Of a stretch of 64,000 nt of DNA, positions 29,516 through 51,167 are shown in pieces; positions within the stretch are counted from its first letter, which is position 1, and every line of letters starts with the position of its first letter. This stretch comes from Rheinheimera sp. EpRS3 (GTDB lineage Bacteria; Pseudomonadota; Gammaproteobacteria; Enterobacterales; Alteromonadaceae): NCBI RefSeq assembly GCF_001513785.1, contig NZ_LNQS01000001.1:806001-870000 (forward strand), written 5' to 3'. Made by a program: the position numbers and the translations under genes. A model generated the notes under the pieces. It was not told where the DNA came from and ran no database searches. It saw only the letters and a list, made by a program, of their open reading frames with translations.

Positions 29516-32128
29516 ATGATAATAATAACAAGGCTATGCCTTATCGCAGTTTGTATTGTACTGGTAGCATGCAAAGCAGATATCAGCGTACAGGATGAAC
29601 CCACCGATCCGGTAGTGCAGGAAATTGCCCTCGCTTTTGTTGAACGCCCGTTACTGGTTGACGACGAACGCTATCAAAGCAATTTGTTTGACCCTTCAGC
29701 CTTTAATCCCGGTGCACGGTTAGTACTTAAGCAAAATGCGTTTGCCCAGTCAGCTGAAACCGATCTTACTGCCAGCCTGTTTACCGAAAATTCCCTATAC
29801 GATGTAAAAGATTTAGCCGCTTCGCCAGATGGCACTACCTTGTTGTTTGCCCTGCGCGCGCCGCAATTACCCAATGTTGCCGATGAGCTGCAGCCGAAGT
29901 GGGATTTATGGCGTTACGACGTTGCCAGTAAAACGGTTAGCCCGTTAATTGCCGATACACAACTGGCCCAGCGCGGCCATGATATCAGCCCGGCATTTTT
30001 ACCTGATGGCCGTATTATTTTCAGTTCTACCCGGCAGATTATTTCCCGGCAAATTTTATTAGATGAGTTTAAGCCGCAATATACGGCGTTGGATGAAGAC
30101 ATAAACTCGCCAGCGTTTAACCTGCATGTTATGAATGCCGATGGCAGCAATATTAGCCAACTGAGTTTTAACCTGAGCCACGACCTCTATCCGGTAGTAC
30201 TGGACGATGGCCATATTTTATATAGCCGCTGGGACAACCAGAGCGATCGCTCAATGCTTAACTGGTATCGTATGCGGCCCGATGGCAGCGAGAACCAACT
30301 GGTGTATGGCTGGCATTCGCATAACAGCGGGGCGGAGCAATCGGCAGTGGAGTTTGCTAAGGCGACAGTGCTGGATGATGGCGCTGTGTCTCTGGCTCTG
30401 GCCGGGGTAGATGCACCTTATTACAACAGCTGGCCACAACGTGTGGCACTGGATCTTGCCAGTGACAATGAGCAAGCCCTGGCAGGTGAAACACTGAATA
30501 TGCCAGCGCAGACACCATTATTTGCCTGGGCGTTTGACAATACCAGCCGCGCCGAGCGTGCCGGGGCAGTTAATAGCTACGCTGCACTGAAAGATGGCAC
30601 TGGCCGTTATCTGGTGAGTTGGTCACCGTGTCGCGTGGTGCAGGAAGAAACCATCTTAAGTTGTGCTCAGGTGGCAGAAGATGCCGGGCTGGAACTGGCA
30701 GAACCTTTGTACGGTTTATGGTTGTTTGATACACAAAAGCAAACTCAGGTGCCGGTGCGGCCCGGCCAGGAAGGGGTATTGGTAACAGAGCCTGTCGTGT
30801 TGCAACCTTACACTGCCGGCGCTTTTTTACCGGCAAATCCATTGCTGGACGCAGAGCTGGCTGCGCAAAATGCCGCCGTGCTGGATATTCGTAGCGTATA
30901 TGATTTTGCCGGTGTGGCTGAGGTGGATATTGCCCGGTTGTCTGATCCGATGCAAAGCAATGCTACGCAGCGCCCCGCGCGGTTTTTACGGCTGGCACGC
31001 GGTGTGCCTTTGCCGCCAGAAGAGGTGCTGGACACACCAGACTTTGCCTTTGGCGTTAGCCGCCGTCAGTTGATGCGCGAGATTCTGGGTACTGTTGCCA
31101 TTGAGCCCGATGGCTCTGTGCAGGTAAAAGTACCCGCCAATGTGCCATTTAATCTGGCGGTGCTTAATGGCGAAGGCCAGGCTGTTTCTGCATTGCACCA
31201 GCAATGGATAACACTGCGCCCCGGCGAAACGCTTAGCTGCAATGGCTGCCATACGCCGCAAAGTACCGCGCCGCATGGCAGAGTAAACGGCGAAGGTGAA
31301 GCGGCCAGTGCTAATGCCGGAGCAGCAGGTTTGGCTGCCTTCCCTAATGCTAATCCGCAATTGCTGGCGCAGCCCGGTGAAACCATGGCGCAAACCGCCG
31401 CCAGGTTAAATGGCATACCAGAGCTTAGCGAAGCATTGCAGTATTTAGATATCTGGACCGATCCGGCCAGGCGTGCGCCGGATGCAGCTGTGCAGATCAG
31501 CCTGCAGGATCTGACCACAACTTTACCGGCCGGGCTGGAGTGCTTTTCGCAGTGGCTGGCCAGTTGCCGGTTACGCATAGATTACCCAACCCATATTCAA
31601 CCACTGTGGCAGGAAGATCGGCGCCGCTTTGATCCGGATAGTAACGAACTGATTGCCGATCATACCTGTGTCAGTTGCCATAGCAGAACCGATGCTAACG
31701 GCGATAGCCGGGTACCTTTGGCACAACTGGAACTGGATGCAGAGCCGTCAGATCTGCAAGCTGAGCATTATCGCAGTTACCGCGAACTGTTAAGTGCCGA
31801 TAACGAGCAGGAGCTGGTGGGCGCTGTGCTGGTTGATCGCCTGGTGCAGGCTACCGATGCTGACGGTAATTTGCTGTTTGTTACCGACGGCGCCGGCAAT
31901 CTGGTACTTGATGACAACGGCAATCCCATTCCTGTGATGGTAACAGTGGCGGTTACCCCCGCCATGCGCGCTGGCAGCGCTGTGGGCAGTGGCGCATTTT
32001 TCAGTTTATTTGGTAATACTGGCAGCCATCAGGGTTATTTAACAGCCACCGAGCTTAAACTGCTGGCCGACTGGCTGGATATTGGTGCACAGTATTACAA
32101 CTCGCCTTTTGCCGTGCCGGAGCAATAA
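29516..32128 (+). CDS. HzsA-like beta-propeller lipoprotein with two c-heme motifs
   Basis: An 870-residue exported protein. The signal peptide ends in lipobox LVAC (Cys19). Residues about 90-300 show TolB/PD40-like propeller repeats (SPDGTTLLFAL, LPDGRIIFSSTR, NLHVMNADGSNISQLSFN, DGHILYSRWDN). The middle part resembles the domain named after the hydrazine synthase alpha subunit (LDIRSVYDF, ARFLRLARGVPLPP, VPANVPFNLAVLN). CNGCH (575-579) and CVSCH (718-722) are c-type heme sites. Such proteins occur far outside anammox bacteria, so hydrazine chemistry is not implied. It heads an unbroken ~20-kb run of genes and likely carries electrons at the outer membrane or in the periplasm. Confidence 0.75.
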   Translation: MIIITRLCLIAVCIVLVACKADISVQDEPTDPVVQEIALAFVERPLLVDDERYQSNLFDPSAFNPGARLVLKQNAFAQSAETDLTASLFTENSLYDVKDLAASPDGTTLLFALRAPQLPNVADELQPKWDLWRYDVASKTVSPLIADTQLAQRGHDISPAFLPDGRIIFSSTRQIISRQILLDEFKPQYTALDEDINSPAFNLHVMNADGSNISQLSFNLSHDLYPVVLDDGHILYSRWDNQSDRSMLNWYRMRPDGSENQLVYGWHSHNSGAEQSAVEFAKATVLDDGAVSLALAGVDAPYYNSWPQRVALDLASDNEQALAGETLNMPAQTPLFAWAFDNTSRAERAGAVNSYAALKDGTGRYLVSWSPCRVVQEETILSCAQVAEDAGLELAEPLYGLWLFDTQKQTQVPVRPGQEGVLVTEPVVLQPYTAGAFLPANPLLDAELAAQNAAVLDIRSVYDFAGVAEVDIARLSDPMQSNATQRPARFLRLARGVPLPPEEVLDTPDFAFGVSRRQLMREILGTVAIEPDGSVQVKVPANVPFNLAVLNGEGQAVSALHQQWITLRPGETLSCNGCHTPQSTAPHGRVNGEGEAASANAGAAGLAAFPNANPQLLAQPGETMAQTAARLNGIPELSEALQYLDIWTDPARRAPDAAVQISLQDLTTTLPAGLECFSQWLASCRLRIDYPTHIQPLWQEDRRRFDPDSNELIADHTCVSCHSRTDANGDSRVPLAQLELDAEPSDLQAEHYRSYRELLSADNEQELVGAVLVDRLVQATDADGNLLFVTDGAGNLVLDDNGNPIPVMVTVAVTPAMRAGSAVGSGAFFSLFGNTGSHQGYLTATELKLLADWLDIGAQYYNSPFAVPEQ

Positions 32129-32851
32129 ATGATACGGCTATTAATGTTACTTCTTAGTGTATTAAGCCTGCAGTTAATGGCTGAAACAGTCGCTGTTAAA
32201 GTAAGCGGCGACTTTGTCAATTTGCATTCCGGCCCCGGCCGCGGTTACCCCATCGTGCAGGTAGCCATTAAAGGTGAGGCGTTAGTACTCAATAAACGCC
32301 GGACCGACTGGGTACAGGTAGAGTTTAAACAACAGCAGTACTGGCTGGCGCGAGCTGATCTGACGCAATTGGTTACGCTACAACAGCAGACATTCACTGT
32401 GTCGGATGAGCGCATAGCATTGTATGAGCAGCGTTCGCTTGAAGCGGGCTTTATGTTTGGCGACTTTAACGGCAGCAGTTTTTATCAGCTGTCGCTGGCG
32501 TATTTGTTTAGCCCCTATGTGCAAACCGAGCTGGCGGTAGGGCAGGCTAATGGAGATCAGGCTGACAACCTGTCAGCCGAGCTAAGCGTGTATTTAAGCC
32601 CGATGCCACACTGGCGCTGGTCACCTTATTTTGGCATCGGCGGTGGTGTGCTGCGTACCACGCCGCGAACGGTGCTGGTGCAAACGCCGGATCGTAATAA
32701 CAGCCTGGCCAGTGCTGAGTTGGGGGTACGTTATTACCTTCGCCGTAATTTTATCGCCCGTGCCGGTTACCGGCGCAGTATTATCGTTACCGATCGCAAT
32801 GACAACGAAGAGATAGACACATGGAAACTTGGTTTCAGCGTATTTTTTTAG
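32129..32851 (+). CDS. SH3-domain outer-membrane beta-barrel protein
   Basis: A 240-residue exported protein. A signal peptide (about 1-18, ending LMA) is followed by a bacterial SH3 domain (about 20-80: VNLHSGPGRGYPIVQVAIKGEALVLNKRRTDWVQVEF, WLARADLT). A short barrel region follows (about 110-240) with alternating aromatic strands, ending in the outer-membrane signature of a terminal Phe (FSVFF). The SH3 part may bind peptidoglycan while the barrel sits in the outer membrane. It begins one base after the HzsA-like gene and overlaps the next barrel gene by 31 bp. Confidence 0.72.
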   Translation: MIRLLMLLLSVLSLQLMAETVAVKVSGDFVNLHSGPGRGYPIVQVAIKGEALVLNKRRTDWVQVEFKQQQYWLARADLTQLVTLQQQTFTVSDERIALYEQRSLEAGFMFGDFNGSSFYQLSLAYLFSPYVQTELAVGQANGDQADNLSAELSVYLSPMPHWRWSPYFGIGGGVLRTTPRTVLVQTPDRNNSLASAELGVRYYLRRNFIARAGYRRSIIVTDRNDNEEIDTWKLGFSVFF

Positions 32852-33435
32852 TGCTGGGTCTGGCACCCGCTCTGGCTTATGCACAGCAGGTTGAGCCGGA
32901 TATCAACCAAAGCAGTATCAGCGAAAACGTGCTGGATAGCGAAAACTGGTTGCTGGGCCTGCATGGCGGCATGATCAATATTGAAGATTTTGGCAGCAGT
33001 GCACTGGGTGCATTGCAGCTTAGTTACCACATTAACGAAGACTTTTACCTGAGCGCCGAGTACGCCATGGCTAAAGCTGGGCGCACCTCGTTTGAAGAGC
33101 TGAGCGGCGCGGCGCCACTGCTGACCGACAGCGAACGCGAGTGGCGTTATTACGGCGCTCATATCGGCTATGTGCTGTTACCGGGCGAAGTGTTTTTAAA
33201 CCGTAACTACGCGATGAACAGCGGCCTGTCGGTATTTGCCGGTGGTGGAAATGTCGATTTTGCCGGAGATAAGGTATTCGCGCTGCAACTGGGCAGCCAG
33301 TTCAAACTATACGCCACAGACTGGCTGGCGCTTGAGCTGACCTTTAGCGACTATATTTTTGAAACCACCATACTGGCGCGCAGCAAAACCACACATAACC
33401 TTAGCCTGGCTTTGGGTATGGCGGTGTATTTCTAG
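32821..33435 (+). CDS. Outer-membrane beta-barrel protein (OMP_myx_plus-like)
   Basis: A 204-residue exported barrel. The signal peptide ends at about residue 21 (AYA-QQ). The rest matches in style a family of small barrels first noticed near gliding-motility and proteosortase genes in myxobacteria (TIGR04565-like): SENWLLGLHGGMINIEDFGSS, EDFYLSAEYAMAKAG, and a last strand ending GMAVYF with terminal Phe. It overlaps the upstream SH3-barrel gene by 31 bp. Pairing of two barrels suggests a joint outer-membrane unit; that is inference. Confidence 0.68.
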   Translation: METWFQRIFLVLGLAPALAYAQQVEPDINQSSISENVLDSENWLLGLHGGMINIEDFGSSALGALQLSYHINEDFYLSAEYAMAKAGRTSFEELSGAAPLLTDSEREWRYYGAHIGYVLLPGEVFLNRNYAMNSGLSVFAGGGNVDFAGDKVFALQLGSQFKLYATDWLALELTFSDYIFETTILARSKTTHNLSLALGMAVYF

Positions 33436-33455: not shown

Positions 33456-33938
33456 ATGAAACGATTAATACAAAGCAGCATGCTGCTACTGGCACTGGGG
33501 TTGTCAGCTACGGTGCAGGCGCAAACCGCACCCGATTTCACCTTAAAGGCACTGGATGGCAATAACCTGCGTTTAGCCGAGCAACGTGGCGACATTATGC
33601 TTATTAATTTCTGGGCCAGTTGGTGCGGCCCCTGTATTCAGGAAATGCCGGCGCTGGACAAACTGGCGCAAAAATACCAGATGCTGGGGGTGCAGGTTTG
33701 GGGCGTGAATGTCGAAAGTGACAACTCCGCCGCCAAAGCCTACCTGAGCAAGGTGCAGGTGGCGTTTCCTATTCTGTTTGATGTTGATAACAGTGTGTCG
33801 AAAGATTATCGCGTAGAGGCGATGCCCACCACAGTGATATTGGATAAAGACGGTAAGGTGCGCAGTGTGCACCGCGGATATAAGCCGGGGTATGAAAAAA
33901 AATATGAAGACGACATCAAAGGTTTATTACGTGAATAA
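33456..33938 (+). CDS. TlpA-family periplasmic thioredoxin
   Basis: A 160-residue exported thioredoxin-fold protein. Signal peptide about 1-22 (ending VQA), then the redox motif WASWCGPC with Cys57 and Cys60, and the cis-Pro loop VEAMPTTVILDKDG near 125. TlpA/ResA proteins reduce disulfides in apocytochromes or partner proteins; here three c-heme proteins and Cys-rich DUF4266 are in the same run, so it may serve their maturation. Ribosome site AGAGGT. It overlaps the DUF4266 start by eight bases. Confidence 0.85.
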   Translation: MKRLIQSSMLLLALGLSATVQAQTAPDFTLKALDGNNLRLAEQRGDIMLINFWASWCGPCIQEMPALDKLAQKYQMLGVQVWGVNVESDNSAAKAYLSKVQVAFPILFDVDNSVSKDYRVEAMPTTVILDKDGKVRSVHRGYKPGYEKKYEDDIKGLLRE

Positions 33939-34155
33939 ACATCTGCTAAGCGCCGCAGCGGTGCTACTGTTACTCAGTGGCTGTGCCGGTATGGAGCCTT
34001 GGGTAAAACCCTACGAGCGCGACAAACTGGCCGATCCGATCATGGCGTTCGGCCGCCATCCGGTGGCATTGCAGCATGTTGCCCACGTGCAGGACTCACG
34101 TGAAGCCGCCAAAGGCGCAAATGGCAGCGGAGGCGGTGGTTGTGGCTGTAACTAG
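33931..34155 (+). CDS. DUF4266 lipoprotein with Gly/Cys-rich tail
   Basis: A 74-residue lipoprotein. I place the start at GTG 33931, inside the end of the TlpA gene, with AAAGG eight bases before; a longer frame from 33865 would add residues that are not signal-like. The lipobox is LSGC. The mature part has the DUF4266 pattern: VKPYERDKLADPIM, a HVAHVQDSREAAKG segment, and a tail of Gly residues ending CGCN. The two tail cysteines could bind metal or form a disulfide handled by the thioredoxin next door. DUF4266 and DUF3570 genes typically occur side by side, as here. Confidence 0.8.
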   Translation: MNKHLLSAAAVLLLLSGCAGMEPWVKPYERDKLADPIMAFGRHPVALQHVAHVQDSREAAKGANGSGGGGCGCN

Positions 34156-35272
34156 GCTGTTAGCATTACTGTGCTTTATGTGTTCAGTAGCGCAGGCGGC
34201 AGTATTGCCGGAAGACAGGGCTGATCTGATGTACCACAGCTATCAGGGCGGTGGTGTGTCTATTGATGGCCCGGCGGTGATGCTGCGTAAAAAAGCCGGT
34301 CAGGCGGTGTCGTTATCGGCCTATTACTATATTGATACCGTATCCGGCGCCTCTATTGATGTGGTAGCCACAGCGTCGGCTTATAGCGAAACACGCCATG
34401 AAAAGCGTGTTGGCATTGATTATTTGGCAGGTAACAGCATTTTAAGCGCCAACTACGCCCAAAGCGACGAAGATGATTACAAGGCTAAATCGGTGTCTTT
34501 TGCTATAGCTCATGACACCTTTGGCGGCATGACCACCCTTAGCCTGGAGGCTGGTCTTGGCGATGACGACGTCGGCCGCAACGGCGATGAAAGTTTTAGC
34601 GAAAGCGTAAAACGCTACAACTACAAACTGGGCTGGACCCAGGTGCTAAGCAGCAACTGGATCAGCGCCCTGAATGTGCAGGTTGATTTAGACGAAGGCT
34701 TTTTAAATAACCCTTATCGCAGTGTGCGTTACCGTGATAATACCGAGCCGCTCGGCTATGGCTATCAAAGCGAGGTGTATCCCTCTACCCGTAATTCACT
34801 GGCAGTTGCCGTGGTAAACAAAGTGTATTTGCCCTATCGCGCTGCACTTAGCTTTAACCTGCGCCATTATCAGGACAGTTGGGATATCCGTGCACTGGAT
34901 GCCGAGCTGGAATATGTGCACCCGCTTAGCCAGCGCTGGACGCTGGACGCGAAAATACGCTGGTACAGCCAAAGCCAGGCCGAGTTTTACCGTGACTTAT
35001 TTGATTTTGCCAGCCAGCAAAACTTTATGGCGCGTGACAAAGAGCTGAGCGACTTTACCAACTGGACTTTTGGCGTCGGGGCCAGTTACCGCCTGCCGGG
35101 CTGGGACTTTTGGCCACTGGCCAAACCCGAACTTAACCTGCAGTGGGACCACATCCGCTTTAGCTATAACAATTTTCGTGATGTAACCGCCACCGACACC
35201 GACGTTGGCCTGGAGCCACTGTACCGGCTGGACGCCAATGTGTTGCGGGCGTTTTTTAGTCTGTATTTTTAA
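34121..35272 (+). CDS. DUF3570 outer-membrane protein with possible flavinylation site
   Basis: About 383 residues from ATG 34121 (AAAGG upstream; a GTG at 34142 is an alternative). The signal peptide ends near residue 26 (AQA). The remainder is beta-strand rich with a last strand ending FFSLYF, typical of an outer-membrane barrel. Near the N-terminus, D72-T-V-S-G-A-S78 fits the acceptor pattern Dxx(S/T)GA(S/T) of the flavin transferase ApbE, and an apbE gene lies at the end of the cluster. The gene overlaps DUF4266 by 35 bp. Attachment of FMN here is inference. Confidence 0.78.
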   Translation: MAAEAVVVAVTRLLALLCFMCSVAQAAVLPEDRADLMYHSYQGGGVSIDGPAVMLRKKAGQAVSLSAYYYIDTVSGASIDVVATASAYSETRHEKRVGIDYLAGNSILSANYAQSDEDDYKAKSVSFAIAHDTFGGMTTLSLEAGLGDDDVGRNGDESFSESVKRYNYKLGWTQVLSSNWISALNVQVDLDEGFLNNPYRSVRYRDNTEPLGYGYQSEVYPSTRNSLAVAVVNKVYLPYRAALSFNLRHYQDSWDIRALDAELEYVHPLSQRWTLDAKIRWYSQSQAEFYRDLFDFASQQNFMARDKELSDFTNWTFGVGASYRLPGWDFWPLAKPELNLQWDHIRFSYNNFRDVTATDTDVGLEPLYRLDANVLRAFFSLYF

Positions 35273-35301: not shown

Positions 35302-35808
35302 ATGAGAGCGCTACTACTAAGTTGTTTGCTGTTGCTAAGCGCCCAGGCAGGTGCCAATACGCCCGCCAGTGATCAGCTGGAGCAGCTGAAACAGCAGGTT
35401 ATTCAGTTAAACCGCGAGCTGTTTTTGCTGGAGGAAGAATTGTTATTTCCACCGCAAACTCAACTTGCTGTGTTTTTGTCGGTAGACAGCGGCCAGTTTT
35501 TCCAGCTCGACAGTGTTGAGCTAATGCTGAACGACAAACCGGTAGAGGGCCATTTATACACTGCTCAGCAGTGGGATGCGCTAAAACGTGGTGCTATCCA
35601 GCCGTTGTACAAAGGCAATGTTAAAGCCGGAGAGCATAACCTGACGGCGGTATTTGTTGGCAAAGGGCCGGACAACCGCGACTACCGCCGTGCAGTAAGT
35701 TACCGCTTTAATAAAGCAGAAGATGCCGTATTGCTGGAGCTGCAGGTAAAAGATCGCAGCAGTGATTATCAACCTGAATTTATTGTGCAGCCATGGTCAA
35801 ACGACTGA
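35302..35808 (+). CDS. Small periplasmic coiled-coil protein, unknown
   Basis: A 168-residue exported protein. Signal peptide about 1-19 (ending AGA), a short coiled coil (about 24-46: DQLEQLKQQVIQLNRELFLLEEELL), then a beta-rich domain with phrases such as VFLSVDSGQFFQLDSVELMLNDKPV and GEHNLTAVFVGKGPDNRDY. The latter resembles a small sandwich domain that may bind another envelope protein. I do not recognise a named family. It overlaps the next gene by 16 bp and starts the part of the run that encodes TPR and TolQR-like proteins. Confidence 0.65.
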   Translation: MRALLLSCLLLLSAQAGANTPASDQLEQLKQQVIQLNRELFLLEEELLFPPQTQLAVFLSVDSGQFFQLDSVELMLNDKPVEGHLYTAQQWDALKRGAIQPLYKGNVKAGEHNLTAVFVGKGPDNRDYRRAVSYRFNKAEDAVLLELQVKDRSSDYQPEFIVQPWSND

Positions 35809-37640
35809 TAGTGCCCGTCAGCCTGGTATTGCTATCTGTTTTTGTGATGGCAGAGCCGGTATCGCTTAGCGAAAAACATTATCGCCAGGCGGCGTGGGCC
35901 TTTTATCAGCAACAACCTGCCAGCGCGCTTGAAGCGCTGCAACTGGCGCCGCAGCAGGATGGCCGCATCCGCTTACTGGAAGCCGGTTTGTATTTGCAAC
36001 TGGCTATGCCGCAACATGCTGCTACTGCGCTGGAACAGGTGTTGGCACAGCCTGCAGATGATAACGCCGTACCTCAGGCTCTGAAAAATATTGCCTTATT
36101 GCAGTTTGCCCGTTATCAGTTAGAACTGGGCAATAAAACCGCTGCCCGCCAGTATCTGGAGCAGGTGAATATTACCGCCGATGGTGCCTGGCGCGGCCAG
36201 CAGCAACTGCTAAGCCAGCTTATTCACTGGCCGGATATCAGTGTGCCGCCCCAGCCGGATTTTGTCTCACTGGCAGATCAGCCAGAAATGCCTTATGTCA
36301 TCAGTAATCAGGCGCTGGTGCTGGCAAAGCAGCAGCCAGAACAGGCGCTTAACTGGCTGGCCGGGTTGCAGCAGCAATTTGTCACGCCAGCTGAGCAAGG
36401 CTTCTGGCAACAGCTGTTTTCCGGACGCTGGAGTTTACTTAGCCGGCCTGATGGTTTTGTTTATCCTGATGACGAAAAGCAGGCGCTGGATGATTACCTA
36501 CAGCTTACTCAGGCCCAGCTGCATATTCAGCTGCAGGATTATGCCGCAGCCGATGCTATTCTGGCTAACTTTGGCCGCGACAGTGTGCTTAGCAGCAATG
36601 CGCTGGAGCTATATAGCTATATTCTTACCGAGCAGCGGCATATTCCGGCTTTGCTGGCAGTATTGCAGCAACAGATCCGTCAGCAACCGTTTAGCAACAC
36701 GGCCTGGCAAGCGGCAACCCGCATCGGCGAGCAGTTAGAGCGGGCATTGCAGCCCGATGATGCGCTGGCCGCTTACAACTGGGCCGACAATTACTATCAG
36801 CAGCAATACCAGCTGATTAATCAGCAGGCGAATCCGCTTCAGGTGCAGCAAGTGGTGCAAGGTGCCAGCCAGTGGCAGCAATTACAGTTAACTAACGACA
36901 ACAATCTGTACCGGCTACAGCAGGATATTATTGCGCTACAGCAACAGCTTACGGCTGCACCAGAGCGCCAGCAGCGGCTGACGAGCTTGCAGCAAACGGC
37001 TGAGTTTAAGTTAAACCAGCAACAACAATTACTCAGCAGCCAGTTGCCACAGCTTAGTGCACGGCGCCAGCAATTGCAGGGTGAGTTTGCGGCAGTACAG
37101 CAGCAAATCAGCGCATTAACAGACAATAGCCTGCCGCTGGCTCTGACACAGGGCAAGCTGTACCAGCAGGTAAGCAGGCTGCAGCGTGCCGGGCAACATT
37201 TACAGCAGTTACCGCCTGAGCAGGCCGACACTTACAGTCAGCGCCTGACCCGGCTGCGTGGTTTGTTGCAGTGGCAATATTATGAAGATAGCGCCGCGCA
37301 GCAATATCAGCTTAGCCGGTTGCAGCAGCAAATCAGCATGGCGCTTACTGAGCTGGATAACCGCTTACAGGCACTGCGCCGGCAAGGCACACAAACTGAC
37401 CGGCTGCGTCGGCAACAGCAACGCTTAACCGAATTAAGCGCGCAGCAGCAACAGCTGAACCTGGCGCTGTTAAGCCAGCAACAGCAATTACTGGCGCAGC
37501 TGAATCAGCGGTTACAACAGCACCGCCAGCAAGATATCGCGCGGTTGCAACAGTTGCAGCGGCACAATAAAGAATCACTGGCCCGGGTGATGGAACTGGT
37601 ATTGCTAAAGCGTGCCGCTAACAGCGGAGGCCAGCCATGA
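35793..37640 (+). CDS. Gln-rich periplasmic repeat and coiled-coil protein
   Basis: A 615-residue exported protein with a signal peptide (about 1-20). Residues about 25-320 are TPR-like helical repeats (HYRQAAWAFYQQQPASALEAL, LYLQLAMPQHAATAL). Residues about 350-610 are long coiled coil, extremely rich in Gln, Leu and Arg (repeated QQQ, RLQQ, LTSLQQ). Such a rod could span a good part of the periplasm. It overlaps both neighbours by a few bases (ATGA into the next gene), so strict co-translation is likely. It has no close match that I recognise; a structural element of the envelope complex is inferred. Confidence 0.65.
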   Translation: MVKRLIVPVSLVLLSVFVMAEPVSLSEKHYRQAAWAFYQQQPASALEALQLAPQQDGRIRLLEAGLYLQLAMPQHAATALEQVLAQPADDNAVPQALKNIALLQFARYQLELGNKTAARQYLEQVNITADGAWRGQQQLLSQLIHWPDISVPPQPDFVSLADQPEMPYVISNQALVLAKQQPEQALNWLAGLQQQFVTPAEQGFWQQLFSGRWSLLSRPDGFVYPDDEKQALDDYLQLTQAQLHIQLQDYAAADAILANFGRDSVLSSNALELYSYILTEQRHIPALLAVLQQQIRQQPFSNTAWQAATRIGEQLERALQPDDALAAYNWADNYYQQQYQLINQQANPLQVQQVVQGASQWQQLQLTNDNNLYRLQQDIIALQQQLTAAPERQQRLTSLQQTAEFKLNQQQQLLSSQLPQLSARRQQLQGEFAAVQQQISALTDNSLPLALTQGKLYQQVSRLQRAGQHLQQLPPEQADTYSQRLTRLRGLLQWQYYEDSAAQQYQLSRLQQQISMALTELDNRLQALRRQGTQTDRLRRQQQRLTELSAQQQQLNLALLSQQQQLLAQLNQRLQQHRQQDIARLQQLQRHNKESLARVMELVLLKRAANSGGQP

Positions 37641-42572: not shown

Positions 42573-43090
42573 AAATGTCATTTCGCGCCAAACGCTTAGA
42601 GCGGCAGAACCAACGTTTGGCGCAGGCTGGTAAACTGAACCTGGTCGCGCTGATGGATATTTTCACCATACTGGTATTCTTTTTAATGGTGAACCAGTCT
42701 GAAGTTAAAGTGCTGCAAAGCAATAAAGAGATCAACTTACCGCGTTCAGTATCTGAGCAGTTACCCAGCGAAAAAGTGATGTTAACCATTACCACCAACG
42801 GTGTGCTGGTGCAGGGTAAACCGGTGTGGCAGGGCGATTGGCAGCAAGACAGCAACAACTGGCTGCCTGAGCTTACTGAGGCGTTAACTGTCGAGCTGAA
42901 TTATCTGGCCAACCGGGCCGGGCCTTTAGCGCCAGAGCAACAGCCGGTTGGCCGGGCGCTGACGATACTGGGTGATGCTGCTACGCCTTATGCGCTGCTG
43001 CGCCAGTTAATGGCTATTTGTGCTGCTACCGAATACCGCGATTTATCGCTGGCGGTGGAAGCTATGGCGCCAGCTGTGGAGGCGCCATGA
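42569..43090 (+). CDS. TolR/ExbD-like protein 2 with canonical Asp
   Basis: A 173-residue bitopic protein. The transmembrane helix (about 24-43) contains LVALMDIFTILVFFLMV with Asp30 at the conserved proton-binding site. The periplasmic part has VMLTITTNGVLVQGKPVW and a C-terminal ALLRQLMAICAATEYRDLSLAVE, as in ExbD/TolR. One TolQ with two TolR homologues also occurs in the AglR-X-V type motors. It overlaps both neighbours by four bases (ATGA). Confidence 0.86.
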   Translation: MKMSFRAKRLERQNQRLAQAGKLNLVALMDIFTILVFFLMVNQSEVKVLQSNKEINLPRSVSEQLPSEKVMLTITTNGVLVQGKPVWQGDWQQDSNNWLPELTEALTVELNYLANRAGPLAPEQQPVGRALTILGDAATPYALLRQLMAICAATEYRDLSLAVEAMAPAVEAP

Positions 43091-44031: not shown

Positions 44032-44054
44032 TAACACAGCCGGAGGTGATAAAA

Positions 44055-45251
44055 ATGCGTTATCTAGGCTATGTCAGAGTAATGGTTTTTGGCAGTTTGC
44101 TCTTTGCTGCGATGGCGCAGGCCGGTTCACTGGAGCAGGCAAAAAGGCTGCATGACCGTATCGCAGGTGTACCGGCAGATGCCGCCACCTTAAGCCAGAT
44201 GCAGGCGCTGATTGATGGCGGTAATGCCACGGCGGCAGCGGAGCTGGCCATGCAGCACCCGGATTTTTACCGCACAACGCTGAAGTTATTTGCCTCAGCG
44301 GCAACCAACCGCGAGCTGGATGTGTTCGAGCCGCTGAACGATTACAGCGCCACCGTGATCGGTCTGGTGCGAGATGATGTAGATTTTCGCCAGTTGCTGC
44401 AAACCGACATTTTATATGTCGGTGCCGACAGCCTGGGTTTACCGCAGTATCAAAGTAACAATAACGAACACTATCTGGCGCTGGAGCGCGAAGCCGTCGA
44501 TTTAGCCCAGCACTTACAGCCTCGGGCGCAAAGCACGTTAAATGGTATTCCGGCAGATGCAGCCGCGGGGGTAATGACCAGTCGCGCCGCCGCGAAGGCA
44601 TTTTTTTACCTTGGCACTAACCGCGCCATGTTTCGTTTTACGCTGATGAGCCAACTGTGCACCGACTTAGAGCCGCTGCAGGATATCACCACGCCAACCG
44701 ACCGGATCCGGCAGGATGTCAGCCGCAGCCCCGGTGGTGACAGCCGTATTTTTAACAACCGCTGTGTCGGCTGTCACGCCGGCATGGACTCGTTGGCGCA
44801 AGCCTTTGCCTATTACGATTATCAGTTTACTGATGAAAGCGGCAGCAACGGCCGGGTTTTTTATCAGCAAAGCGGCACGCAAAATGAAAGCACCCAAAGC
44901 CGGGTGCAACCCAAATACCATATCAATGCCGGCACCTTCCCTTATGGCTTTCGCACACAGGACGACAGCTGGACTAACTACTGGCGCGAAGGACAAAACC
45001 AGGCGCTGGGCTGGGATAACAGCCTGCCGGGTGAAGGTAACGGCGCCAGAAGCCTGGGTCAGGAGCTGGCCAACAGCGCTGCTTTTGCTCAGTGCCAGGT
45101 AAAAAAGGTATTTCGTACGGTGTGCCTGCGCGAGCCGGAAAACCTCAGTGATGTGGCTGCACTGCACAGCATTACCGACAGTTTTCGCAGTGGCGGTTAC
45201 CGCCTGAAACAGGTGTTTGCCGACACCGCTACTTATTGTATGGGAGACTAA
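44055..45251 (+). CDS. Exported c-type heme protein (DUF1588-like pattern)
   Basis: 398 residues from ATG 44055, which has GGAGGTG upstream. Signal peptide about 1-24 (ending AQA). A helical N-terminal half is followed by RCVGCHAGMDSLAQAFAYYDY, with C237VGCH241 as c-heme motif. The phrase resembles the CxxCHxxMDPxGxxxExFD signature of the DUF1588 part of planctomycete-type cytochrome proteins. Other cysteines occur near the C-terminus. It is 23 bp after agmX-like and 3 bp before the next gene, so probably in the same operon. Confidence 0.65.
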   Translation: MRYLGYVRVMVFGSLLFAAMAQAGSLEQAKRLHDRIAGVPADAATLSQMQALIDGGNATAAAELAMQHPDFYRTTLKLFASAATNRELDVFEPLNDYSATVIGLVRDDVDFRQLLQTDILYVGADSLGLPQYQSNNNEHYLALEREAVDLAQHLQPRAQSTLNGIPADAAAGVMTSRAAAKAFFYLGTNRAMFRFTLMSQLCTDLEPLQDITTPTDRIRQDVSRSPGGDSRIFNNRCVGCHAGMDSLAQAFAYYDYQFTDESGSNGRVFYQQSGTQNESTQSRVQPKYHINAGTFPYGFRTQDDSWTNYWREGQNQALGWDNSLPGEGNGARSLGQELANSAAFAQCQVKKVFRTVCLREPENLSDVAALHSITDSFRSGGYRLKQVFADTATYCMGD

Positions 45252-45254: not shown

Positions 45255-47681
45255 ATGAAGTTATTTTTACTCCCATTACTGGCGTTAAGCCTGTTGTTAG
45301 CCGGTTGCGGTGGGGCAGAAGTAGAGCAAAACCCGCCACCACCGGTACAGGAAGACAATGTTAATTACACCGGGCCTGCACCGCAAACGGCTGATATCCA
45401 GCTGTTTAAACTTACGCTGTGGGATAATATCGCCGCCGGTAACCGCTGCGGTGCCTGTCATGTTGCCGGTAATACCGCGCCATTTTTTGCCCGTAACGAC
45501 GATATTAACCTGGCCTATGCTGCTGCCACCCCGCTGGTTAATCTGGCCGATCCGGCGCAATCGCTGCTGGTAACTAAACTGGCCGGTGGCCATAATTGCT
45601 GGCAGGCCAGCGACAGTGCCTGTGCCGACACTATGGCGCAGTGGGTGCGTAACTGGGCTAACAGCACCGACACCCAAAGCGCTACCGTAACCCTGGTTGC
45701 GCCGCCGGTGCGCGAGCCCGGTGCCAGCAAAGCGTTGCCGGACGATGCCACCTTGTTTGGCGGTTCGGTGTATCCGCTGCTGCGCCAGCACTGTGTAAAC
45801 TGCCACGCGCCGGATGCACCACAAACCCAGTCGCCATTTTTTGCCGACAGCGATCTTGCCGCGGCCTATCAGGCCAGCCGTAAACTGATTAACCTCGACA
45901 GCCCAGAACTGTCGCGCTTTGTTGCCCGGCTGGCGGGAGAGTTTCATAACTGCTGGTCAAACTGTGACGATGATGCGGCCACTATGCTGGCAGCGGTGCG
46001 CCAGATAGCCGACAGTGTTGAGCTAACTGAACTTGACCCGGCATTAGTGCCGTCTAAGGCTTTGCGGCTGGACGATGGTGTGGTGGCCTCCAGTGGTGGC
46101 CGCTTTGAAGCTAACCAGATTGCGTTTTATCAGTTTAAAACCGGCAGTGGCGCTATTGCCTACGACACCTCAGGCGTAGAGCCAGCGGCAAATTTAAGCC
46201 TGCAGGGTGATATTGGCTGGGTAACCGGCTGGGGTATTCAGATTAACAGTGGCCGGGCGCAGGCCAGCACGCAAAATAGCAACAAGCTGGCCCGGCTTAT
46301 CAGCGCCACCGGTGAAATGACGGTAGAAGCCTGGGTAGTGCCGGCTAATGTGACGCAGGAAGGCCCGGCCGCTATTGTCAGCTATGCTGGCAGCAGCACC
46401 GAGCGTAACTTTACGCTGGGCCAGACACAGTACAACTACAACTTTTTACTGCGCTCTGCCGCCACGGATTTTGCCGGTTTGCCGGCATTAAGCACAGCAG
46501 ATGCCGATCAACTGCTGCAGGCTACATTGCAGCATGTGGTGCTGACACAAGACCCGGTAAACGGCCGGCGCATTTATATCAATGGCCAGGACAGCGGTGC
46601 GCGCGACACCGCAGATGCTATCCGTAACTGGGATGACAGCTATGCGCTGATTGTCGGTAACGAAGCCAACGGCAACCGCCAATGGCAGGGCACCATGCGC
46701 TTGCTGGCTATTCACAATAAAGCCTTAACTGCAGCGCAAATTCAGCAAAACTATAATGTTGGTGTCGGGCAGAAGTTTTACCTGTTATTTGGCGTTGGCG
46801 AGCTGATTAACCTGCCCGACAGTTATATTGTGTTTGAGGTAGCCCAGTTTGATAATTACTCTTATCTGTTTAACTCGCCCTATCTGGTAAATCTGGAGGG
46901 GCGCAGCCTGCCACAGGCACTGACGATTAGCGGCATGGCGATAGGCATTAACGGTCAAGAAGCGGTAACCGGCCAGAGCTGGCTAAAACAACGTTTTAAC
47001 CTGGCATCCGGCACGCCACTGTCAGAAGGGGCCGAGTTGTCGGCGCAGGGCACTATTATTGCTGCTGAGCAAGGCGCGGCCAGCGACGAGTTCTTTTTAT
47101 CGTTCGGCCGTATTGGCGAGCTGGAAAATGTGCGCACCGGCATCAGTGTGCCGGTGCAACAGATTACCGCCAGCACCAGAGAGAGTAGTGATATTGGCCT
47201 GAGAACCTTTGCAGAAATTCATGCCAGTATGAGCGCGCTGACCGGCGTAGCACAAGAACAAAGCGCGGTAGCAGACATTTACCAGACCATACAGCGGCAG
47301 TTACCGGCAGCTGAGGCTATCGATACCTTTGTCTCGGCGCAGCAGATGGCGATCACGCAGTTAGCTATCGCTTACTGTAATGCCGCTATTGAAGATACCA
47401 GTTTGCGCCAAAGCTGGTTCCCGGCGGCAGATTTTAGTGCCAGCCCGGCTATCACCTACAGCCTGGCTAACCGGCCGTTGGTTGTGCAGCCGCTACTTAA
47501 CCGGTTAATGCCGTTGTCACCGGCAAGCTCAGCATCGCCGGCCGATGTTGAAGCTGAACTGGATGCGCTGATCACCCGCTTAAGCACCTGCAGCGGCGCT
47601 TGTAGCAGTGACCGCAGCCTTACCATTGCCAAAGCGGCCTGTACTGCGGTACTGGCCAGTGCAGAACTGCTGGTGCAGTAG
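45255..47681 (+). CDS. Di-heme LamG-domain lipoprotein
   Basis: An 808-residue lipoprotein with lipobox LAGC near residue 18. Two c-heme motifs follow: C65GACH69 and C180VNCH184, each in a similar setting (RNDDINLAYAAATPLVNL versus FADSDLAAAYQASRKLINL), so the region is an internal duplication of one mono-heme module. Residues about 350-505 form a LamG/concanavalin-like domain (GEMTVEAWVVPA, HVVLTQDPVNGRRIYINGQ, WQGTMRLLAIHNKALTAAQIQQNYNVG) that may bind glycans or the cell surface. The rest is unassigned. Surface-exposed redox function is inferred. Confidence 0.7.
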   Translation: MKLFLLPLLALSLLLAGCGGAEVEQNPPPPVQEDNVNYTGPAPQTADIQLFKLTLWDNIAAGNRCGACHVAGNTAPFFARNDDINLAYAAATPLVNLADPAQSLLVTKLAGGHNCWQASDSACADTMAQWVRNWANSTDTQSATVTLVAPPVREPGASKALPDDATLFGGSVYPLLRQHCVNCHAPDAPQTQSPFFADSDLAAAYQASRKLINLDSPELSRFVARLAGEFHNCWSNCDDDAATMLAAVRQIADSVELTELDPALVPSKALRLDDGVVASSGGRFEANQIAFYQFKTGSGAIAYDTSGVEPAANLSLQGDIGWVTGWGIQINSGRAQASTQNSNKLARLISATGEMTVEAWVVPANVTQEGPAAIVSYAGSSTERNFTLGQTQYNYNFLLRSAATDFAGLPALSTADADQLLQATLQHVVLTQDPVNGRRIYINGQDSGARDTADAIRNWDDSYALIVGNEANGNRQWQGTMRLLAIHNKALTAAQIQQNYNVGVGQKFYLLFGVGELINLPDSYIVFEVAQFDNYSYLFNSPYLVNLEGRSLPQALTISGMAIGINGQEAVTGQSWLKQRFNLASGTPLSEGAELSAQGTIIAAEQGAASDEFFLSFGRIGELENVRTGISVPVQQITASTRESSDIGLRTFAEIHASMSALTGVAQEQSAVADIYQTIQRQLPAAEAIDTFVSAQQMAITQLAIAYCNAAIEDTSLRQSWFPAADFSASPAITYSLANRPLVVQPLLNRLMPLSPASSASPADVEAELDALITRLSTCSGACSSDRSLTIAKAACTAVLASAELLVQ

Positions 47682-47691
47682 GAGATAAAAG

Positions 47692-49269
47692 ATGAAAAGA
47701 GCAAAACCTTTGCACCCCGACAGCCCGTTGCTGCATGCCTGCCACAGTAAACCGGTAAGCCGACGCGACTTTATCGCCTGTGGTTTAAGTTACGGCGCTG
47801 CAGTGCTAACCACTGGCTCGGTATTTGGCATGTTTGCTAACCCCGGTAAAGCACAGGCGCAGTTATCACCTGATTTAGAAGCGCTAAAACAGCTGTGCGG
47901 TATTAATGTGCAGGGCGCTGGTAAAATTCCGTTTATTTGCTTCGACTTAGCCGGTGGCGCCAATATTGCCGGTTCTAATGTGTTGGTGGGCGGTGCAGGG
48001 GGCCAGCTCGATTTTTTATCGGTGCAGGGCTACAGTAAACTGGGCCTGCCGCCGGATATGGTGCCAACAGCAGTTAATGCCGCTAACCCGGCCGGGGGCT
48101 TTGTTAATAATCAGCTGGGGTTGGCGTTTCACAGCGATTCACAAATGCTGGCCGGCATTTTAGAGCGTACCACTTTGGCTACCCAAGCCATGACCAATGG
48201 CGCTGTGTTACCGTCACGCTCGGAAAACGATACCGGCAATAACCCGCATAACCCGATGTACGCTATTGCCAAAGCCGGTGCCAGCGGTTCATTAATGCCA
48301 TTGGTAGGGTCGCGCAATTCAGATTCCGGCGCTAACTCTATGGCACCAATGGAGTTTTATAATGCCGAACTGCGGCCGACCAAAATTGACCGGCCAAGTG
48401 ATGTTACCGGCCTGGTTGATGTTGGCGATTTGTTCGGCCTGTTAAACCAAAATGATGCCGTGGCGGTGATGGAATCTGTGCAGCGCATCAGCGACAGCAA
48501 ACTAAGCCGGGTTAATACCAATATCAGCCGCGATGCGGTGATTAAAGATCTGATCCGCTGTGGTTATGTAAAAAGTGCTGATCTGGCCGATCGCTTTGGT
48601 AACCCGGCGACACTGGATCCGGCCGCTGATGTGGATATTGTCGGTGCGGCCGGTATTTTTAGCGCGGCAGAATTTAACGGCGATGCCGAGTTTCGTAAAA
48701 CCGCTTCGGTAATGAAGCTGGTGGTAAATGGCTTTGCCGGTGCGGGTTCCATCACCATTGGGGGTTACGACTACCACACCGGTGAACGCGGTACCGGTGA
48801 GCTGCGCGATTTACGCGCCGGCCGTTGTATTGGCGCCTGCCTGGAATATGCCGCAAGAATGAACCAGCCGCTGATGATTTATGTGTACAGTGATGGCTCG
48901 GTAGACAGCAACGGCCGTATTGACGATTCAGAAGCAGGTCGGGGTAAAGGCGAGTGGACTGGCGATAACTCCTCCACTGCTGCCTCTTTTCTGCTGGTAT
49001 ACAGCCCCAATGGCCGCCCCTCTTTGCTGGGTGGTACCACGGCGGAGCAGGCCAGACATCAGCAAATTGGCTTTATGCGGCCGGATGCGTCGGTAGAAAC
49101 CGGCTCATCGGTGGCAGCGAACAACGTTAACCTGCTGGTGCAAACAGTGCTGTTAAACTATCTGGCACTAAGCGGTGAGCAAAACCGTCTGGCCGAAGTG
49201 GCACCGTTTCATGGTTTAGGTAATGCTGCCAGTATTGACCGCCTTACAGCATTTGAGCCTATTGTTTAG
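47692..49269 (+). CDS. Tat-exported DUF1501-like protein
   Basis: A 525-residue protein. A twin-arginine motif SRRDFIACG (residues 23-31) and a hydrophobic stretch lead to a likely cleavage near AQA at about 56. The body resembles DUF1501/DUF1552 proteins of the alkaline-phosphatase-like fold: FICFDLAGGANIAGSN near the start, GGYDYHTGERGTGELRDL at about 357-374 and IYVYSDGSVDSNGRIDDSE near 400. Catalytic residues cannot be assigned by eye. In planctomycetes DUF1501 genes pair with c-heme proteins; here it follows two c-heme genes. It is the last gene of the ~20-kb run. Confidence 0.55.
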   Translation: MKRAKPLHPDSPLLHACHSKPVSRRDFIACGLSYGAAVLTTGSVFGMFANPGKAQAQLSPDLEALKQLCGINVQGAGKIPFICFDLAGGANIAGSNVLVGGAGGQLDFLSVQGYSKLGLPPDMVPTAVNAANPAGGFVNNQLGLAFHSDSQMLAGILERTTLATQAMTNGAVLPSRSENDTGNNPHNPMYAIAKAGASGSLMPLVGSRNSDSGANSMAPMEFYNAELRPTKIDRPSDVTGLVDVGDLFGLLNQNDAVAVMESVQRISDSKLSRVNTNISRDAVIKDLIRCGYVKSADLADRFGNPATLDPAADVDIVGAAGIFSAAEFNGDAEFRKTASVMKLVVNGFAGAGSITIGGYDYHTGERGTGELRDLRAGRCIGACLEYAARMNQPLMIYVYSDGSVDSNGRIDDSEAGRGKGEWTGDNSSTAASFLLVYSPNGRPSLLGGTTAEQARHQQIGFMRPDASVETGSSVAANNVNLLVQTVLLNYLALSGEQNRLAEVAPFHGLGNAASIDRLTAFEPIV

Positions 49270-49348
49270 CTATTTTTTTGCAGCGGCAGGCAAAGTGGCT
49301 TCGCCGGGCTTATAGTTGATGTCTGTGCGTTTTATTGCAGGGTGCATA

Positions 49349-50155: not shown

Positions 50156-50168
50156 ACCAGCAGGCAAC

Positions 50169-51167
50169 TCAGGGTTGGCTCAGGCCGCTGGAAAAATGCA
50201 TTTGCCGCTCTGCGGTAATAAATATGGCGTCATAACCATCGATTTGTTCAATCAGTGCCATACCCTGCTTTAATCCCAATACAAATAATGTGGTAGATAA
50301 TGCATCGGTTTGGGTGGTGTCAGCACCGGTCACTGTTACGCTAAGCAGGCCGGTAGCACTTTGGCCGGTTTTAGGGTCCAGAATATGATGGTAGCGCACA
50401 CCATCTTCAATAAAGTAACGTTCATAATCGCCTGATGTGCTGATAGCACTGTTTTCCAGTGGTAACTGGGCGGCGTATTTATCGTCCTGGCGCGGGTGTT
50501 TAATGGCTACCAGCCAGGGTTTGCCTCTTTTATCGCCCAACAGGCGGGTATCACCACCGGCAGTAAGCAACGCATTGCTGATGCCATGCTGTGCCAGTAA
50601 GGCAATGCTGCGCTCAACCGCATAACCTTTGGCTATGCCGCCCAGATCAATTTTAACGCCAGGCTGGGCAAAGCGGACGGTGTTATTTTTTAGTAGTTCA
50701 ACGCTCTGATAATTAACATATTGTCTGGCTTTTTGTAGCTCTGTAGCGTCAGGCTTTTTATGGTTACGGTAATCGTAGTAAAAACCGACTGAAGCAAAGG
50801 TAATATCAAAAGCACCGTTGCTTTGCTGTGAAATCTGCTTGGCGCGCTGCAATAACTGATACATCTCAGCAGATACCTGCACCGGTTTTTTTGCCGCTTC
50901 GCGGTTTAACAGGCTGAGTTCACTGCTGGCAATGTAAGGGCTCATCAGCTGGTTTATCCGCTCAAACTCGGCCTGCACTTCACTGATCAGCTGTTCTGCT
51001 TGTTTGCTGTCTTCACTCCACAGCTCAATATAGGCCTGAGTACCCAGTGTCTGAAACGACTTTTGTTGCCACTGCGCATTAGCAGTGGCTGTGAACTGCA
51101 GCAAAAACACAGCAATAACAAAACAGAACAGAGCGGGCTGGCGGCATGGTTTCATTAAAAAAGTCAT
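50169..51167 (-). CDS. apbE: FAD:protein FMN transferase ApbE
   Basis: Attaches FMN covalently to Thr/Ser of exported redox proteins. 332 residues with a signal peptide (cleavage near NAQ at about 31). Conserved parts are TLGTQAYIELW, INQLMSPYIASSELSLLN, NGAFDITFASVGFYYDYR, KIDLGGIAKGYAVERSIALL, NALLTAGGDTRLLG and HHILDPKTGQSATGLLSVTVTGADTTQTDALSTTLFVLG. The gene is opposite in strand to the preceding cluster and converges on the solute-binding gene. The only candidate substrate I found nearby is the DUF3570 protein (SGAS motif). Confidence 0.92.
   Translation of the reverse strand: MTFLMKPCRQPALFCFVIAVFLLQFTATANAQWQQKSFQTLGTQAYIELWSEDSKQAEQLISEVQAEFERINQLMSPYIASSELSLLNREAAKKPVQVSAEMYQLLQRAKQISQQSNGAFDITFASVGFYYDYRNHKKPDATELQKARQYVNYQSVELLKNNTVRFAQPGVKIDLGGIAKGYAVERSIALLAQHGISNALLTAGGDTRLLGDKRGKPWLVAIKHPRQDDKYAAQLPLENSAISTSGDYERYFIEDGVRYHHILDPKTGQSATGLLSVTVTGADTTQTDALSTTLFVLGLKQGMALIEQIDGYDAIFITAERQMHFSSGLSQP

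What the first reader, a model, noticed from the sequence alone, without database searches (positions are those of the whole stretch)
29516..51167. A ~20-kb envelope cluster joining an Agl/Glt-like proton motor with c-heme and flavin proteins
Eighteen co-directional genes with overlaps or tiny gaps encode one TolQ/ExbB protein, two TolR/ExbD proteins, an AgmX/TonB-like transducer, two TPR lipoproteins, a long coiled-coil protein and three predicted outer-membrane barrels. This set matches the parts list of the AglRQS/Glt trans-envelope machine (established for myxobacterial gliding). Interleaved with it are an HzsA-like di-heme lipoprotein, two more c-heme proteins, TlpA, DUF4266/DUF3570, a Tat DUF1501-like protein and nearby apbE. 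I know no described system that combines these. Inference: a proton-motive-force-driven machine that moves, assembles or exports redox proteins at the outer membrane.
Basis: partly seen in the sequence, partly recalled or inferred. Interest (0 to 1): 0.9.

Follow-up and report, generated by a model that had tools for sequence, protein, structure and literature searches.

The report
Proton motor tied to redox barrels
A run of about 18 genes in a marine-type bacterium joins a proton-driven envelope motor to outer-membrane barrels, a flavin carrier and heme proteins, and the same partnership recurs in many related bacteria, which gives a first testable clue to what this motor does outside the gliding myxobacteria.

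Summary
Nineteen co-directional genes (29516-50155) plus an opposed apbE encode a TolQ/TolR/TolR/AgmX motor, TPR and coiled-coil proteins, three outer-membrane barrels (one of them DUF3570), TlpA, DUF4266, an HzsA-like diheme lipoprotein, two more c-heme proteins and a Tat protein. The nearest relatives found are Rheinheimera.

Two recurring modules emerge: a nine-gene motor core (M) and a redox/outer-membrane module (R). In 369 gammaproteobacterial genomes, 53 of 56 with this DUF3570 subfamily have the core TolQ, against 31 of 313 without it; two of the three exceptions show other core genes at contig ends. R and M genes recur in several orders. Of 20 other DUF3570 loci that I chose, none has the extra R genes or the motor genes. 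R seems to need M; M often occurs without R.

New details: one TolR has Asn at the pore position (99 of 105), the other Asp (104 of 104); DUF3570 is predicted to be a 16-strand barrel whose flavin site lies among conserved loops at one mouth.

Both halves were known separately (Luciano 2011; Méheust 2021); my searches found no paper joining them. "DUF1501" is not supported. That the motor mechanically serves a surface redox complex is inference.

The parts
29516..32128 (+). HzsA-like diheme lipoprotein (propeller + HZS_alpha middle domain)
   Evidence: PF18582 61.4 bits, PD40; two CxxCH and lipobox LVAC; phmmer to hydrazine synthase alpha 5c2v_A E 2.9e-5, CxxCH aligned
32129..32851 (+). b1: SH3 domain + outer-membrane barrel
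   Evidence: SH3_3 and OMP_b-brl just below cut-off; C-terminal F in 57 of 59 homologues, Y in 2
32821..33435 (+). b2: outer-membrane barrel, OMP_myx_plus family
   Evidence: TIGR04565 142 bits, cut-off 60; C-terminal F 69 of 69
33456..33938 (+). TlpA/ResA-type periplasmic thiol redox protein
   Evidence: AhpC-TSA 107 bits; WCxxC in 72 of 74 homologues
33865..34155 (+). DUF4266 lipoprotein with C-terminal CGCN (CxC); true start probably a downstream ATG
   Evidence: PF14086 77.4 bits; ends CGCN in 38 of 38 loci; lipobox LSGC
34076..35272 (+). DUF3570 flavo-barrel of the motor-linked subfamily; flavinylation-type site D87..S90-G-A-S93
   Evidence: PF12094 135.6 bits; site; 16-strand barrel model, pLDDT 79.5
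35302..35808 (+). core gene u168, small protein of unknown family, probably exported
   Evidence: found in 71 of 80 loci
35793..37640 (+). core gene cc615, TPR/coiled-coil protein, probably exported
   Evidence: 64 of 80 loci; weak PspA/SMC coiled-coil hits
37637..40507 (+). core gene tpr956, TPR lipoprotein (YbgF/BamD-like repeats)
   Evidence: 74 of 80 loci; TIGR02795 44 bits, below cut-off
40494..41102 (+). core gene tpr202, TPR lipoprotein; weak GltE and Tgl hits
   Evidence: 74 of 80 loci; TPR_12 48.5 bits; NF033758 GltE 26 vs cut-off 225
41035..41397 (+). core gene u120, small protein of unknown family
   Evidence: 75 of 80 loci
41411..42070 (+). TolQ/ExbB-type channel (AglR position)
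   Evidence: PF01618 97.8 bits
42027..42572 (+). TolR1 (AglQ position); pore position N30
   Evidence: PF02472 54.8 bits; N 99, S 5, D 1 of 105; aligned to the Asp of ExbD 7ajq_F
42569..43090 (+). TolR2 (AglS position); pore position D30
   Evidence: PF02472 47.9 bits; D 104 of 104, one row with a gap
43018..44031 (+). AgmX/GltG-type TonB-like transducer
   Evidence: NF033768 56.5 vs cut-off 40
44004..45251 (+). cyt415 (c4), one c-heme, PSD2/DUF1585-like C-terminus
   Evidence: PF07624 23.2 vs cut-off 25.8; one CxxCH in 32 of 32
45255..47681 (+). cyt808 (c8), diheme lipoprotein with LamG domain
   Evidence: PF13385 74.7 bits; two CxxCH in 31 of 36, one in 2, none in 3
47692..49269 (+). Tat-exported conserved protein of unnamed family ('DUF1501-like' in the finding; not confirmed)
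   Evidence: RR-x-F at residue 24; 8 relatives 56-89% identical to it; no informative Pfam match
50169..51167 (-). ApbE FAD:protein FMN transferase
   Evidence: PF02424 287.7 bits

Best explanation
A two-module envelope machine. Module M is a proton-driven trans-envelope motor: a TolQ ring, a two-protein TolR axle, an AgmX/TonB-like transducer, TPR lipoproteins and a coiled-coil protein. Module R is an outer-membrane redox complex: three barrels, one a DUF3570 barrel with a flavinylation-type site; an HzsA-like diheme lipoprotein; a LamG diheme lipoprotein; a monoheme protein; a Tat-exported protein; and a thiol pair (TlpA, DUF4266 CxC) with ApbE to load the flavin. Shown here: the gene sets, their repeated linkage and genome-level co-occurrence, the Asn/Asp split of the TolR pair, and conservation of heme, thiol and barrel signatures. 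Inferred: the motor, through AgmX and the TPR proteins, does mechanical work on the R complex in the outer membrane (gating, moving or cycling the barrel-bound flavin/heme site), so that electrons pass between the periplasmic thiol pair and a surface substrate, perhaps a polysaccharide held by the LamG domain. Least certain: the substrate, the direction of electron flow and what the work achieves.
For: Co-occurrence 53 of 56 vs 31 of 313 genomes (Fisher p 4e-38, not corrected for relatedness), with both in 28 families. Two of the three exceptions carry other core genes at contig ends. R genes and core genes recur in several orders; 38 of 80 named loci have DUF3570 beside the core and 63 of 80 have at least one R gene within the 10 kb on either side. 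In 10 of 21 regions where DUF3570 and TolQ are not close (L103-L123), the u168-cc615-tpr956 half of the core lies beside DUF3570. Negative control: 0 of 20 chosen other DUF3570 loci have HzsA, b1, b2, cytochromes, the Tat protein or TolQ/TolR/AgmX; two have weak TPR hits. TolR1 Asn in 99 of 105, TolR2 Asp in 104 of 104. DUF3570: 16-strand barrel model with conserved positions at one mouth, 39 of 92 loop residues vs 3 of 29 at the other, flavin site included. AgmX C-terminal domain above cut-off.
Against: M occurs without this DUF3570 subfamily in 31 of 84 genomes; of these I looked at 14 core regions, 13 without any R gene and one with a weak TlpA-like hit (L127-L140). The c4-c8-Tat triplet stands alone in G230 and G263, and G297 and G512 have the Tat protein and TolQ but not this DUF3570. 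Genomes with only other DUF3570 are also richer in the core (16 of 38) than genomes with none (15 of 275), so part of the co-occurrence is taxonomic. The [ST]GA[ST] site reads SSAS or SAAS in 20 of 38 loci, so flavinylation is uncertain there. Which barrel end faces outward rests on the usual outer-membrane topology. No expression or interaction data.
Confidence: 0.5

Rival explanations
1. Assembly or export: the motor moves R lipoproteins and barrels to, through or along the outer membrane (as the Agl motor moves Nfs or Glt parts) but takes no part once they are in place.
For: R has lipoproteins with lipoboxes (HzsA-like, DUF4266, cyt808) and three barrels; the Agl motor drives surface movement of Nfs and Glt parts in Myxococcus (PMC3858216, passages); one-sided need of R for M.
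Against: No export partner stands out among the recurrent neighbours except type II secretion gspLMN-like genes beside ApbE in 10 loci (identified by eye, no family search).
Confidence: 0.25
2. TonB-like import: the AgmX C-terminal domain opens one barrel to bring a substrate into the periplasm, where the heme and flavin enzymes act on it.
For: AgmX has a weak TonB_C match (17 bits, cut-off 24.6); the DUF3570 model resembles outer-membrane transport barrels in general (top match the PelBC transporter, TM 0.49).
Against: No TonB-dependent-receptor or plug family matched in the cluster; a TonB box was not looked for; cyt808 and the HzsA-like protein are lipoproteins that may face outward.
Confidence: 0.17
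3. No functional coupling: two envelope modules share a locus and a clade by inheritance or joint transfer.
For: The R label follows the core tree (7 Fitch changes vs mean 12.0, minimum 8 in 500 shuffles); the core lacks this DUF3570 in 31 of 84 genomes.
Against: Linkage in several orders; both present though far apart on one contig in G014, G059, G173 and G479; 0 of 20 chosen other DUF3570 loci linked to the motor.
Confidence: 0.08

Closest known systems
Agl/Glt core complex (AglRQS + GltC, D, E, G) of Gammaproteobacteria, Luciano et al. 2011 (PMC3169522; passages and section 7 read)
   Same: One TolQ, two TolR, a GltG/AgmX-type transducer and TPR proteins clustered in Gammaproteobacteria; function stated as unknown there; an extra gene without myxobacterial homologues.
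   Different: The passages read name no redox partners; TolR1 here has Asn where a review (PMC9389320, passages) describes a conserved aspartate in both AglQ and AglS; full-length GltG/GltE models far below cut-off.
ApbE-DUF3570-DUF4266-thioredoxin flavinylation clusters, Meheust et al. 2021 (PMC8238504; passages read)
   Same: Same four gene types; DUF3570 shown there to be flavinylated at [ST]GA[ST] sites; DUF4266 with C-terminal CxC.
   Different: Separate DUF3570 subfamily here (230 bits or more vs 132 or less with profile A1, one 149.6-bit fragment aside), in genomes with the motor (53 of 56), and accompanied by further genes (HzsA-like, b1, b2, c4, c8, Tat protein); no DsbD in the cluster.
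Planctomycete-type cytochromes (PSCyt/PSD) with LamG domains (PMC5615132; passages read)
   Same: c-heme proteins with PSD2/DUF1585-like end and LamG (PF13385) domain, function unknown, proposed to act on carbohydrates.
   Different: PSD2 match just below cut-off; here tied to a motor; the Tat partner has no Pfam family.
Hydrazine synthase alpha subunit HzsA
   Same: Propeller repeats plus HZS_alpha middle domain with CxxCH, two CxxCH in all.
   Different: NCBIfam equivalog score 35.5 vs 800; no HzsB/HzsC match in the cluster; organisms are not anammox (recalled).

Membership tests
Agl/Glt core complex | TolQ/ExbB-type AglR with two adjacent TolR/ExbD genes | tested here: met
   PF01618 and two PF02472 above cut-off; TolR1 found in 79 and TolR2 in 77 of 80 loci
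Agl/Glt core complex | Both AglQ and AglS keep the membrane aspartate (PMC9389320 passages) | tested here: not met
   TolR1 N30 in 99 of 105, TolR2 D30 in 104 of 104
Agl/Glt core complex | GltG with AgmX/PglI C-terminal domain | tested here: met
   NF033768 56.5 vs 40; the full-length GltG model is not reached (33.7 vs 650)
Agl/Glt core complex | GltE TPR lipoprotein | tested here: inconclusive
   NF033758 26 vs 225; lipobox and TPR present
Agl/Glt core complex | GltC and GltD | not testable with these tools
   No NCBIfam GltC/GltD hit (I do not know whether such models exist); no Myxococcus sequences were at hand
Agl/Glt gliding machine (Group A genes) | gltA, B, F, H, I, J, K present | tested here: inconclusive
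   Only a GltJ partial hit 32.5 vs 450 and, for another gliding protein, CglE 17.3 vs 70
DUF3570 flavinylation system | ApbE, DUF3570, DUF4266 with CxC and thioredoxin-like protein together | tested here: met
DUF3570 flavinylation system | [ST]GA[ST] flavin site in DUF3570 | tested here: met
   SGAS in the window; [ST]GA[ST] in 18 of 38 loci, SSAS/SAAS in the other 20
DUF3570 flavinylation system | DsbD electron donor beside it | tested here: not met
   No DsbD match among the 20 cluster proteins; the paper also counts 316 clusters without DsbD beside them
DUF3570 flavinylation system | Covalent FMN on DUF3570 | not testable with these tools
   Needs UV-gel or mass spectrometry
Hydrazine synthase | HzsA equivalog with HzsB and HzsC | tested here: not met
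   35.5 vs 800 bits; no HzsB/HzsC match
DUF1501 | Pfam DUF1501 match | tested here: not met
   No DUF1501 match in 9 members at E up to 1
Tol-Pal / TonB-ExbBD | TolQ/ExbB equivalog and TonB or Pal partner | tested here: not met
   TolQ 59.9 vs 221, ExbB 47.7 vs 206; TonB_C 17 vs 24.6; no Pal match
Planctomycete PSCyt/PSD proteins | PSD2/DUF1585 domain | tested here: inconclusive
   23.2 vs cut-off 25.8

The most novel reading that the evidence does not exclude
A new class of envelope machine in which proton flow mechanically drives a surface flavo-cytochrome complex: a lopsided TolR axle (one Asp, one Asn subunit) works, through an AgmX transducer, on a flavin-bearing barrel whose conserved outer mouth exchanges electrons with an extracellular substrate. 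Motor force and redox chemistry would be joined across the whole envelope.
Probability: 0.3. Interest if true: 0.93.

Novelty: new variant of a known kind. Interest (0 to 1): 0.8.

Why it matters
The Agl/Glt core of Gammaproteobacteria was described in 2011 as a conserved complex of unknown function (PMC3169522). The link to a defined redox and barrel set gives a concrete, testable role in bacteria such as Rheinheimera, Shewanella and Alteromonas. It also places the motor-linked DUF3570 proteins, HzsA-like proteins and LamG cytochromes in one system, and the Asn/Asp TolR pair offers a natural experiment on how 5:2 rotary motors work with one protonatable site.

Tried and rejected
DUF1501 membership: rejected by sequence; the structure model was poor (mean pLDDT 51.4), so the fold is unsettled. 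SBP_bac_3 as a part: rejected, matches in 8 of 80 loci only. Other recurrent partners: all-against-all searches of unassigned neighbours found only clade-level or seemingly unrelated ones. Spread beyond Gammaproteobacteria: in a sample of 145 genomes of the phylum the core TolQ was found in 6, all of the same class, and the three DUF3570 hits of this subfamily lay in the window's own family; G590, outside the class, has a weak DUF3570 of the other kind. Structures by sequence: none for DUF3570, one weak match (E 0.24) for the Tat protein, none convincing for AgmX or TolR2. Literature: searches gave no paper that joins the two modules; the library is open-access PubMed Central only.

Limits: one search kept the best 80 of 553 relatives; one search used 95 of 117 regions (all five genes needed); the Fitch count used 63 tips. 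Counts were typed by hand from the tables. The 20 control loci and the regions were chosen by me from longer lists; two control contigs are only 7.5-7.8 kb. Match tables were cut by the tool.
Full report
The window. The DNA is part of a 4.40-Mb, 14-contig genome whose TolQ is 99% identical to those of Rheinheimera hassiensis and R. pacifica. The run starts 160 bases after recA and holds 19 + strand genes, then apbE on the other strand. Two corrections: the Tat protein 47692-49269 has no DUF1501 match, and the substrate-binding protein 49316-50155 looks like a local passenger.

Two modules. I took 80 named loci around relatives of the TolQ (best 80 of 553) and searched their ORFs with profiles of each window protein. 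Nine genes, u168-cc615-tpr956-tpr202-u120-TolQ-TolR1-TolR2-AgmX, are each found in 64 to 80 of the loci and form the core M. The genes b1, b2, TlpA, DUF4266, DUF3570 lie directly upstream of the core in loci of Rheinheimera, Arsukibacterium, Shewanella, Colwellia, Alteromonas, Paraglaciecola, Pseudoalteromonas, Catenovulum and one Marinobacter copy, among others: 38 of 80 loci carry DUF3570 (b1 or b2 is missing at the locus edge in some). Fifteen further loci have ApbE beside the core, 8 have cytochrome/Tat genes, 2 only the barrels, and 17 show the core alone or are short.

Genome-level test. With a profile of this DUF3570 subfamily (A1) and of the TolQ (A2), the same 369 gammaproteobacterial genomes were searched. 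A1 scores are two-peaked: 56 genomes at 230 bits or more, other DUF3570 at 132 or less (one 149.6-bit fragment belongs to G272, already counted). TolQ is in 53 of the 56 and in 31 of the other 313 (odds ratio 161, Fisher p 4e-38, not corrected for kinship; 28 families hold both). Of the three exceptions, G382 and G272 show u168 and cc615 (G382 also tpr956) at contig ends; G534 is a 71% complete genome whose DUF3570 contig is 4.4 kb. Genomes with only other DUF3570 have the TolQ in 16 of 38, those with none in 15 of 275, so taxonomy explains part of the signal. The Tat protein (A3) is found in 50 genomes, two of them by fragments alone; 46 have TolQ and 45 the DUF3570 subfamily. An earlier sample of 197 genomes of the order, read by hand, agrees: of 22 genomes with a low-scoring DUF3570 of 93-144 bits, 20 have the TolQ at E 1e-30 or better; G127 has AgmX 1.2 kb away at a contig end, and G152's DUF3570 proved not to be of this subfamily (89 bits with the subfamily profile, plain cluster). 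G023, with a weaker 34-bit match, also has the TolQ. Seven of the 28 TolQ-bearing genomes have no such DUF3570.

Linkage. In 53 genomes with both, the distance is at most 12 kb in 17, 12-25 kb in 10, over 500 kb on one contig in G479, and on different contigs in 25. Sixty fetched stretches show several orders, among them: core, ApbE, Tat, c8 and c4 on one strand with HzsA, b1, b2, TlpA, DUF4266, DUF3570 on the other; core followed by the opposed triplet; R wholly apart from the core (G014, G059, G173). In 10 of the 21 stretches L103-L123 the u168-cc615-tpr956 half of the core lies beside DUF3570 while TolQ lies elsewhere. I looked at 14 of the 31 genomes with core but without the subfamily: 13 core regions hold no R gene and one a weak TlpA-like hit. 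The R label changes at least 7 times on the core tree (63 tips; 12.0 mean and 8 minimum in 500 shuffles), so it is partly inherited and partly gained or lost anew.

Negative control. Twenty chosen loci of other DUF3570 proteins show DUF4266 in all 20, TlpA in 19 and ApbE in 19, and no HzsA, b1, b2, cytochrome, Tat, TolQ, TolR or AgmX gene; two have a weak hit to the tpr202 profile (38 and 53 bits). The core-linked ApbE scores 405-469 bits with the ApbE profile, those of the control loci 35-202, but that profile was built from core-linked copies. The triplet c4-c8-Tat stands alone in G230 and G263, a real counter-example for those three genes.

The motor. TolR1 has Asn at the pore position in 99 of 105 sequences, Ser in 5 and Asp in 1; TolR2 has Asp in 104 of 104. 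The position aligns with the aspartate of ExbD. A review describes a conserved aspartate in both AglQ and AglS of Myxococcus and says their pairing is unknown (PMC9389320, passages). If the two TolR proteins pair, the axle has one protonatable site. The count includes cores without R, so this is a feature of the core.

The barrel and the flavin. DUF3570 is modelled as a 16-strand barrel (pLDDT 79.5, pTM 0.74); Foldseek finds outer-membrane barrels that are only loosely alike (top match PelBC, TM 0.49). With the usual topology (N-terminus in the periplasm, C-terminal aromatic) the long loops face outward. In most porins such loops vary (recalled); here 39 of 92 loop residues are at least 95% conserved, against 3 of 29 at the other end and 39 of 229 in strands. 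The flavin-type site, D87 to S93, lies there. The site has the [ST]GA[ST] form in 18 of 38 loci and reads SSAS or SAAS in 20. DUF4266 ends CGCN in 38 of 38. HzsA-like proteins keep two CxxCH in 29 of 31, c4 one in 32 of 32, c8 two in 31 of 36.

Reading. The simplest account is a motor core that serves more than one client, with R as a common client in the lineages sampled. What the motor does to R is not shown. I favour mechanical work on the outer-membrane complex, because a one-sided need for the motor, conserved loops around the flavin site and a TonB-like transducer all fit; export and import remain open.

Known and new. The core was described without known function (PMC3169522), its cousins drive gliding and spore-coat assembly (PMC3858216), and the flavin quartet was described with proof of flavinylation (PMC8238504). 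Of these I saw passages, plus section 7 of the first. Eight searches found no paper that joins them; most papers of subscription journals are outside the library.

Noticed in passing
window 51494-63556 (+): Contractile injection system-like cluster directly after apbE: Pvc16_N, sheath, two gp19 tubes, CIS_tube, VgrG-like hub, gp25 and a 1294-aa protein without Pfam match.
   Followed up: no
window 24228-27399 (-): 3-keto-disaccharide hydrolase, GMC oxidoreductase and gluconate 2-dehydrogenase subunit 3 in a row, perhaps a keto-sugar pathway, before recA.
   Followed up: no
L031, L037, L046, L047, L050, L051, L055, L065, L067, L070 (first 2-3 kb): Genes that look like the end of a type II secretion operon (gspL, M, N by eye) directly upstream of ApbE and the motor core.
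   Followed up: partly
L143 6473-11800; L144 11547-17182: The c4-c8-Tat triplet without motor or DUF3570 in the stretch.
   Followed up: partly
L013 1750-2972: DUF3570 of Shewanella algicola reads in two pieces, a frameshift or sequencing error.
   Followed up: no
G000:C8:225126-225965 and G000:C9:475647-476489: Two further ApbE genes in the window's own genome, so the cluster's ApbE is not the only candidate to load DUF3570.
   Followed up: no
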